From Bordetella genomosp. 8 (GTDB taxonomy: Bacteria; Pseudomonadota; Gammaproteobacteria; Burkholderiales; Burkholderiaceae_B): DNA of 64,000 nt. Of the stretch, positions 36,036 through 36,409 are shown one piece after another; position 1 is the first letter of the stretch; the number at the start of each line of letters is the position of its first letter. The notes under the pieces are model-generated. The model had not been told where the DNA came from. It saw only the letters and a list, made by a program, of their open reading frames with translations, and searched no databases. The stretch is from assembly GCF_002119685.1 (NCBI RefSeq), contig NZ_CP021108.1, positions 558,001 to 622,000 of the forward strand. The letters are read 5' to 3'. The position numbers and the translations under genes are program-made.

Positions 36036-36326
36036 CAGGGTTAACCCCCTCGGGCGCGCCGTCGCTCCGGCGGATCCGGCATAAAGGTTGCTACGTAGAA
36101 GAGGACTTATCTGCTGCCCATGCCGGCGATGCTGCGGCGCCAGCGGAATATTAATGCGATGCACAAAAACAACAGTTTGTGGCCCGTTGAATTGCCCCAA
36201 AAATTCTTCTTGCATCGCACAAAAAGTTTGGCTATGATTTGTCCATCGGATGTCGAAACGCAGTCGGTGCGGTGCAAAACCCCGACGGCAGACAGAGTAC
36301 CTGGGAGGGTACTCCAGGGTTAACCC
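36036..36326. repeat. Two copies of palindromic CAGGGTTAACCC
   Basis: CAGGGTTAACCC occurs at 36036-36047, just after coq7, and again at 36315-36326, inside the candidate sRNA. The GGGTTAACCC core is a perfect palindrome. The two copies could be protein-binding sites or paired RNA elements. The bases between them up to the promoter at 36210 hold no gene that I can support. Confidence 0.6.
36210..36238 (+). promoter_or_regulatory. Sigma-70 promoter of the candidate sRNA
   Basis: TTGCAT (36210-36215), a 17-base spacer and TATGAT (36233-36238) give a near-consensus promoter with ideal spacing. It lies in an AT-rich patch within a GC-rich genome. Predicted transcription start is about 36245. Confidence 0.8.
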
Positions 36327-36409
36327 TCTGCGACATGCCACGGTTGTCTCCTCCACCCTCCTCCTTTGGTGGATTTAGCCCGAGATCGTCAGATCTCGGG
36401 CTTTTTTTT
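36245..36409 (+). ncRNA. Candidate small RNA or terminated leader with an anti-SD hairpin loop
   Basis: About 165 bases between a good promoter and a strong terminator, without a supported reading frame. Hairpins visible in order: GTCGG/CCGAC (36263-36286); GAGTACC/GGTACTC with loop TGGGAG (36295-36314); the palindrome AGGGTTAACCCT (36316-36327); TCCACC/GGTGGA (36352-36373) whose loop is CTCCTCCTTT; and the terminator. The loop contains CCTCCTTT, the same bases as the anti-Shine-Dalgarno end of betaproteobacterial 16S rRNA. It could pair with ribosome-binding sites. It may instead be an attenuated leader of the tviB homologue 80 bases downstream. No known family is assigned. Confidence 0.55.
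36377..36409 (+). terminator. Rho-independent terminator of the candidate sRNA
   Basis: A 10-bp stem AGCCCGAGAT / ATCTCGGGCT with loop CGTCAG, followed by eight T (36402-36409). It lies about 80 bases before the tviB start codon and would end transcripts from the promoter at 36210. Confidence 0.92.

What the first reader, a model, noticed from the sequence alone, without database searches (positions are those of the whole stretch)
36210..36409. Candidate small RNA that displays the 16S anti-Shine-Dalgarno sequence in a hairpin loop
A near-consensus promoter (TTGCAT, 17 bases, TATGAT) and a strong terminator bracket about 165 non-coding bases. A 6-bp hairpin (36352-36373) exposes CTCCTCCTTT, which contains CCTCCTTT, the same bases as the anti-SD end of betaproteobacterial 16S rRNA. 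A second CTCCTCC run precedes it. Loop-displayed anti-SD motifs are known in alphaproteobacterial sRNAs of the CcsR/alpha-r15 type, which bind ribosome sites of many mRNAs; I know of none named in this group at this locus. Another hairpin with loop TGGGAG is close by. It could be a global translation regulator or a terminated leader of tviB.
Basis: partly seen in the sequence, partly recalled or inferred. Interest (0 to 1): 0.75.

Follow-up and report, generated by a model that had tools for sequence, protein, structure and literature searches.

The report
S17 small RNA with PhaR operators
This is the local copy of a known betaproteobacterial regulatory RNA (S17) that blocks ribosome binding sites, and its promoter carries what look like binding sites of PhaR, the repressor that senses the bacterium's stored carbon polymer, which suggests that storage status controls this RNA.

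Summary
The locus is the orthologue of Bordetella pertussis S17/CT_433, beside coq7, which represses mRNAs at ribosome sites with Hfq (PMC11722255, PMC12235514). It is not a tviB leader.

The new part is the promoter. Two copies of TGCRNYGCASMA, the published consensus of the polyhydroxybutyrate (PHB) sensing repressor PhaR, lie 56 bp apart at 36155 and 36211, the second on the -35 box. Of 137 testable family genomes with the RNA, 133 of 134 with phaR have the 9-base core upstream and 0 of 3 without phaR; the three lie on separate tree branches. Phasin genes, classical PhaR targets, show such boxes in 29 of 30 loci. In a second family the link is weaker (31 of 46 copies; one of four phaR-less genomes keeps the core). 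I propose that PhaR represses S17 and PHB accumulation releases it. This would name the unidentified repressor postulated for S17 and parallels PhaR-repressed MmgR of Sinorhizobium. No experiment was possible.

The parts
36155..36166 (+). upstream PhaR-type operator TGCGATGCACAA (17-mer frame 36151-36167, 1 mismatch to the R. eutropha consensus)
   Evidence: motif from PMC6201568 and PMC12849132
36211..36222 (+). main PhaR-type operator TGCATCGCACAA overlapping the -35 box (17-mer frame 36207-36223, 1 mismatch)
   Evidence: 9-base core upstream of the RNA in 133 of 134 testable phaR-bearing family genomes
36210..36215 (+). -35 box TTGCAT
   Evidence: same hexamer as the mapped B. pertussis promoter (PMC11722255)
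36233..36238 (+). -10 box TATGAT, spacer 17
36245..36409 (+). long form (S17L-like), 165 nt; start inferred from the B. pertussis 5'-RACE (A, 7 bp after the -10)
   Evidence: sequence; PMC11722255; fold z -3.95
36248..36255 (+). GGATGTCG, 5' arm of a long-range helix of the long form (partner 36331-36339)
   Evidence: compensatory changes in 99 sequences
36331..36339 (+). CGACATGCC, 3' arm of that helix, just before the inferred RNase E site
36345..36409 (+). short form (S17S-like), RF02278; 5' end inferred from the B. pertussis RNase E site
   Evidence: 69.6 bits; PMC11722255
36345..36354 (+). Site 1, unpaired CU-rich 5' end, the main base-pairing region in S17
   Evidence: positions 2-9 invariant in 32 aligned copies; function in PMC11722255
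36352..36373 (+). hairpin 1 with loop CTCCTCCTTT (36358-36367), anti-SD-like Site 2
36377..36409 (+). intrinsic terminator, 11-bp stem and T run
35299..36006 (+). coq7, the conserved upstream neighbour
   Evidence: found on the same strand upstream in 70 of 120 fetched pieces

Best explanation
The locus encodes the orthologue of S17/CT_433 (RF02278). A housekeeping promoter makes a long RNA of about 165 nt that ends at an intrinsic terminator. By analogy with B. pertussis, RNase E cuts it near 36344/36345 to a stable 65-nt form whose unpaired CU-rich 5' end and anti-SD-like loop pair with ribosome binding sites of many mRNAs with Hfq and repress them. The promoter is controlled by PhaR: PhaR on two operators 56 bp apart, one covering the -35 box, blocks RNA polymerase when PHB is scarce. 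When PHB granules form they draw PhaR away and the RNA is made, so carbon-storage status is turned into repression of uptake and catabolic genes. Shown here by sequence: family membership, structure, synteny, operators and their co-loss with phaR. Shown by others for the B. pertussis orthologue: transcript, RNase E and Hfq dependence, repression. Inferred: that PhaR binds here, that it represses rather than activates, and the PHB response.
For: RF02278 at 69.6 bits; S17 position and promoter described in PMC11722255; CT_433 hub and SD-like target motif in PMC12235514. Operators: TGCRNYGCASMA is a PhaR consensus deduced from DNase I footprints plus promoter alignment (PMC6201568) and YTKNTGCRNYGCANMAR the R. 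eutropha one (PMC12849132). Only 3 places in the 64-kb window match the latter with at most 1 mismatch; two are these. Family set of 151 genomes: RNA in 139, PhaR in 137, both in 136. The 9-base core lies within 300 nt upstream of the RNA in 133 of 134 testable phaR-positive genomes and 0 of 3 phaR-negative ones; letter-shuffled upstream sequences have it in 1.4%. In 118 of 139 the box sits on a -35 with a 17-bp spacer to a TA...T -10. The three negatives lie on three branches; G131 and G119 keep a TTGC-type -35 and lack the GCA half. Phasin genes: 29 of 30 loci have the core, 23 of them as a pair 54-57 bp apart; phaR loci 1 of 30. The B. pertussis-like genome G105 has the box and phaR. PhaR represses the sRNA MmgR in S. 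meliloti (PMC12542648).
Against: No binding or expression data. In the second family the link is weaker: G213 lacks detectable phaR and phaC yet all three of its copies keep the core, and 15 of 46 fetched copies from phaR-positive genomes lack it, among them Cupriavidus-type copies with the exact S17 core. G136 has phaR but only a 1-mismatch box. G066, with no phaR found, has both boxes at its phasin gene. Only 17 of 130 family genomes have a second box (at most 1 mismatch) 53-57 bp upstream, so the pair is not general. B. cenocepacia relatives rise in glucose medium but also in starvation medium (PMC5688073). Phasin ribosome sites show no regular complementarity to S17, unlike what is reported for MmgR. 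phaR loss goes with small genomes in the first family, although all 9 phaR-positive RNA genomes of at most 2.4 Mb keep the core.
Confidence: 0.8

Rival explanations
1. The RNA is the S17 orthologue, but TTGCRNYGCASMA is read by another regulator or is simply a preferred -35 context; PhaR is not involved.
For: The box overlaps the -35, so promoter constraint could conserve TTGC; 15 of 46 fetched Burkholderiaceae copies from phaR-positive genomes lack the core, and G213 keeps it without detectable phaR.
Against: The GCA half lies outside the -35 hexamer and is absent in G131, G119 and G196 while a TTGC-type -35 is kept; 0 of 3 phaR-negative against 133 of 134 phaR-positive genomes; similar boxes at phasin genes; match to two published PhaR consensuses.
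Confidence: 0.15
2. Terminated leader (attenuator) of tviB.
For: tviB starts 81 bases after the T run on the same strand in the window.
Against: tviB was found in 38 of 120 fetched pieces, 74 to 5108 bp after the core; a glycosyltransferase gene adjoins S17 on that side in B. pertussis; the RNA acts in trans there (PMC11722255).
Confidence: 0.02
3. A small protein (42 codons, 36250-36378) is the product, or a second product, of the long form.
For: An open frame ending in VVSSTLLLWWI occurs in the window and several relatives; Sim et al. note a 32-residue frame.
Against: 8 of 21 aligned sequences have an ATG frame running into the core, with starts from -29 to -95 and mostly unrelated N-termini; the short form lacks the start; the shared end is the RNA core read in one frame.
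Confidence: 0.03

Closest known systems
S17 / CT_433 of Bordetella pertussis (PMC11722255, PMC12235514)
   Same: position beside coq7, TTGCAT-17-TA...T promoter, identical 27-nt core, terminator
   Different: the 5' domain differs; neither paper's text holds the word PhaR; the long form is 190 nt there, 165 nt (inferred) here
RF02278 Betaproteobacteria toxic sRNA; double-hairpin RNAs ncS03/05/27/62 of Burkholderia cenocepacia (PMC5688073)
   Same: Site 1, two hairpins, CU-rich loop; many Burkholderiaceae copies also have the box on the -35
   Different: several copies per genome, three of four very short without a processed leader; S17S reported not to impair exponential growth of E. coli (PMC11722255)
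MmgR of Sinorhizobium meliloti (RF00519 suhB/mmgR)
   Same: a small RNA reported to be repressed by PhaR (PMC12542648)
   Different: the mmgR model scores 18.9 bits here against a cut-off of 41; no regular phasin pairing
PhaR-controlled phasin promoters
   Same: TGCRNYGCA boxes, in 23 of 30 family loci as a pair 54-57 bp apart
   Different: product is a regulatory RNA, not a granule protein

Membership tests
RF02278 / S17 | covariance model above the gathering score | tested here: met
   69.6 bits against 50, full length
RF02278 / S17 | 27-nt core identical | tested here: met
   exact at 36346-36372
RF02278 / S17 | location next to coq7 | tested here: met
   coq7 ends at 36006
RF02278 / S17 | transcribed, RNase E-processed, Hfq-bound | not testable with these tools
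   shown for the B. pertussis orthologue (PMC11722255, PMC12235514)
RF02278 / S17 | growth inhibition when overexpressed ('toxic') | not testable with these tools
   [quoted passage not shown] coli (PMC11722255)
PhaR regulon | operator matching TGCRNYGCASMA in the promoter | tested here: met
   36155 and 36211
PhaR regulon | operator kept where phaR exists and lost where it does not (window's family) | tested here: met
   133 of 134 against 0 of 3
PhaR regulon | the same dependence in a second family | tested here: inconclusive
   G161, G201 and G196 lack it, G213 keeps it; 31 of 46 fetched copies from 41 phaR-positive genomes have it
PhaR regulon | PhaR binds and PHB relieves it | not testable with these tools
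   no experiment
MmgR (RF00519) | covariance model above the gathering score | tested here: not met
   18.9 against 41 bits
   29.4 against 111 and 22.3 against 46.6 bits; no alpha-r15 model in the list up to E 1

The most novel reading that the evidence does not exclude
PhaR would then be the repressor of the S17 promoter that Sim et al. postulate, joining carbon storage to a main Hfq hub, in parallel to PhaR-MmgR in rhizobia.
Probability: 0.7. Interest if true: 0.7.

Novelty: new member of a known kind. Interest (0 to 1): 0.5.

Why it matters
S17/CT_433 is a major Hfq-dependent hub of B. pertussis whose repressor is postulated but not identified. A conserved PhaR-type operator that is missing where phaR is missing gives a named, directly testable candidate. 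It would also give the 'toxic' RNA family a physiological input, carbon storage.

Tried and rejected
tviB leader (synteny). Coding function (frames not conserved). The GGGAGG hairpin as an internal decoy for the anti-SD (of 20 aligned relatives only G062 and, changed, G020 have it). Phasin mRNAs as general S17 targets (28 loci: longest exact complement 4-7 nt, one of 10 nt). Membership in MmgR, SorX, SorY, NmsRb or anti-hemB (below gathering scores). phaR itself as a PhaR-box gene in this family (1 of 30, a short contig).

Dropped before counts: G145 was not parsed by the script (its box is visible) and G141 had only 23 nt upstream, so 137 of 139 were counted. The phasin and phaR controls used the 30 best-scoring loci returned, not all genomes; two phasin loci (L324, L325) and one phaR locus (L204) are short contigs where the assumed anchor may be wrong; L325 is the one phasin miss and L204 the one phaR hit. 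In the first alignment many rows were in the wrong orientation; it was redone as A2 without L142, a weak match. The tree used 26 of the 30 genomes asked for (three without a match, one split over contigs). In the second family I read only part of the copies: 46 from 41 of 44 phaR-positive RNA genomes, and the 7 listed copies of the 4 phaR-negative ones; 7 of the 31 with the core do not have it in -35 register by a stricter pattern. A draft count that left out the G012 copies was mended.

Full report
What is there. The -35 box is weak by itself (3 of 6) and the promoter scan listed no site. The terminator is strong. The CU motifs alone are within chance. The case for a real gene rests on the Rfam match and on conservation.

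Identity. The whole window was compared with Rfam: 36345-36409 is RF02278, Betaproteobacteria toxic sRNA, 69.6 bits against a cut-off of 50. Sim et al. 2024 (PMC11722255; abstract, results and discussion read, passages elsewhere) describe S17 in B. pertussis between a glycosyltransferase gene and coq7: promoter TTGCAT-17-TACTAT, long form 190 nt, short form of 67 nt attributed to RNase E, Hfq dependence, and repression of BP2158 shown by compensatory mutations at Site 1. A 2025 RIL-seq study (PMC12235514; one section and passages read) calls it CT_433, with 36 S-chimeric partners and an SD-like motif in its targets. The window has the same order (coq7 35299-36006, RNA, sugar genes).

Conservation. 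The 27-nt core is exact in at least 120 stretches of genome contigs; the scan stopped at its limit. coq7 lies upstream on the same strand in 70 of 120 pieces; pieces are at most 8 kb, so this is a lower bound. In 151 genomes of the family of G001 (the genome of L013, Achromobacter aloeverae), 139 have RF02278. The 12 without it are 0.7-2.4 Mb in size except one of 3.6 Mb. On 32 aligned copies (31 distinct) including divergent paralogues, hairpin 1 pairs in 95.2% of cells with changes on both sides at 3 of 6 pairs, the terminator in 80.4% with 9 of 11; the covariation score is 0.386 against 0.153 shuffled and at most 0.166 slid. Two paralogues (L140, L141) have a different hairpin 1 stem while positions 2-9 of Site 1 are kept.

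Long form. Its 5' end GG-ATGTCG pairs with CGACAT-G-CC just before the inferred cleavage point. In 99 sequences, window included, the pair co-varies: ATGTCG:CGACAT 43, ATGTTG:CAACAT 14, ATGACG with TGTCTT or CGTCTT 4, ATGTAG:CTACAT 1, ATATCG:CGATAT 1; mean 5.65 of 6 pairs against 5.27 for shuffled partners, maximum 5.36 in 1000 shuffles. So a closed 5' domain seems to hold the RNase E site in a short linker. That role is inferred.

Promoter: the new point. Upstream of the core I found a block tCTTGCRNYGCASMAA. A strict pattern that excludes C at the N position finds it in 83 of 111 sequences with enough upstream DNA, window included, with a -10-like TA...T at fixed distance in most of them. 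The consensus equals the PhaR site TGCRNYGCASMA deduced from DNase I footprints and promoter alignment in Bradyrhizobium (PMC6201568, passages read) and fits the R. eutropha palindrome YTKNTGCRNYGCANMAR (PMC12849132, passages read). In the window it occurs at 36155 and 36211; a third 12-mer at 46721 lies inside a long ORF, and 3 matches are not more than chance for the window as a whole (1.6 expected). The position is what speaks. For the 17-mer with at most one mismatch there are 3 places in the window, two of them here.

Test of the PhaR link. The same 151 genomes were searched for PhaR (PF07879): 137 have it. Both: 136; RNA only: G072, G119, G131; PhaR only: G151; neither: 11. Upstream DNA was fetched for all 139 RNA genomes. 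Among the 137 that could be counted, the 9-base core TGCRNYGCA occurs within 300 nt in 133 of 134 phaR-positive and 0 of 3 phaR-negative genomes; the 12-mer occurs in 122 of 137. Letter-shuffled upstream sequences give 1.4% and 0.26%; real background near these loci predicts 0.038 cores per 300 nt. In 118 of 139 the box is on a -35 with a 17-bp spacer. By my own arithmetic the 2x2 table has a probability of about 1e-5 if the genomes were independent, which they are not strictly. On a ribosomal-region tree of 26 genomes the three negatives sit on separate branches next to relatives with phaR and, except G136, the core. In G119 and G131 a TTGC-type -35 and a -10-like box remain and only the right half of the operator is gone (sequences). 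All 9 phaR-positive RNA genomes of at most 2.4 Mb keep the core, so genome size alone does not explain the loss. Positive control: 29 of 30 phasin loci have the core, 23 as a pair 54-57 bp apart and 4 as a pair 65-68 bp apart; one of them (L343) is in G066, where no phaR was found. Loci at phaR: 1 of 30. The window's 56-bp pair is phasin-like; in the family only 17 of 130 have such a second box with at most one mismatch.

Second family (that of G012, the genome of L044, Burkholderia singularis; 60 genomes): RNA in 48, PhaR in 46. phaR-negative with RNA: G161 (0 of 1 copy with the core), G201 (0 of 1), G196 (0 of 2), G213 (3 of 3; no phaC found either). phaR-positive: 31 of 46 fetched copies, from 41 of 44 genomes, have the core within 250 nt, 24 of them in -35 register by a stricter pattern. 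The link is therefore strong in the window's family and partial in the other. Several Burkholderiaceae paralogues seem to start directly at Site 1 and have the box at -34, again on the -35.

Mechanism. A box over the -35 and a second site 56 bp away fit repression, as proposed for R. eutropha phaP1 (PMC12849132). PhaR leaves DNA when PHB granules form (abstract of PMC3079617 in the listing; PMC12849132). In S. meliloti PhaR is reported to repress the sRNA MmgR, and gel shifts included its promoter (PMC12542648, passages). Sim et al. postulate an unknown repressor of the S17 promoter. B. cenocepacia relatives are more abundant in glucose medium, though also in starvation medium (PMC5688073, one section and passages). 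B. pertussis growth is sometimes associated with PHB accumulation (PMC4684311, abstract in the listing). How this joins Bvg control is open.

In print? Text searches of the S17, CT_433 and two B. cenocepacia papers found no PhaR (in one only the word Pharmaceutical). Library searches for PhaR with these RNAs or with sRNA showed none linking them, but two gave more papers than were listed (20 of 330, 10 of 34); one search found one paper and none. B. cenocepacia authors note a common motif upstream of three of four copies in a supplement that I could not read; it may be this box.

Noticed in passing
window 24106-24357 (+): Tandem glycine riboswitch aptamers (RF00504, 51 and 56.6 bits).
   Followed up: no
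window 36248-36255 with 36331-36339: Long-range helix of the S17 long form with compensatory changes across the family, closing the 5' domain before the inferred RNase E site.
   Followed up: partly
window 46721-46732 (+): A third TGCRNYGCASMA match, inside a long ORF and probably chance.
   Followed up: no
   Followed up: no
L063, L079, L104, L112: Contigs labelled Klebsiella, Methylopumilus, Bordetella parapertussis and Gammaproteobacteria carry the coq7-S17 arrangement; at least the first, second and fourth look like mislabelled or mixed metagenome bins.
   Followed up: no
L140, L141: RF02278 paralogues with a new hairpin stem (GGTACC) and Site 1 positions 2-9 unchanged, without a PhaR-type core in the 250 nt upstream.
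   Followed up: no
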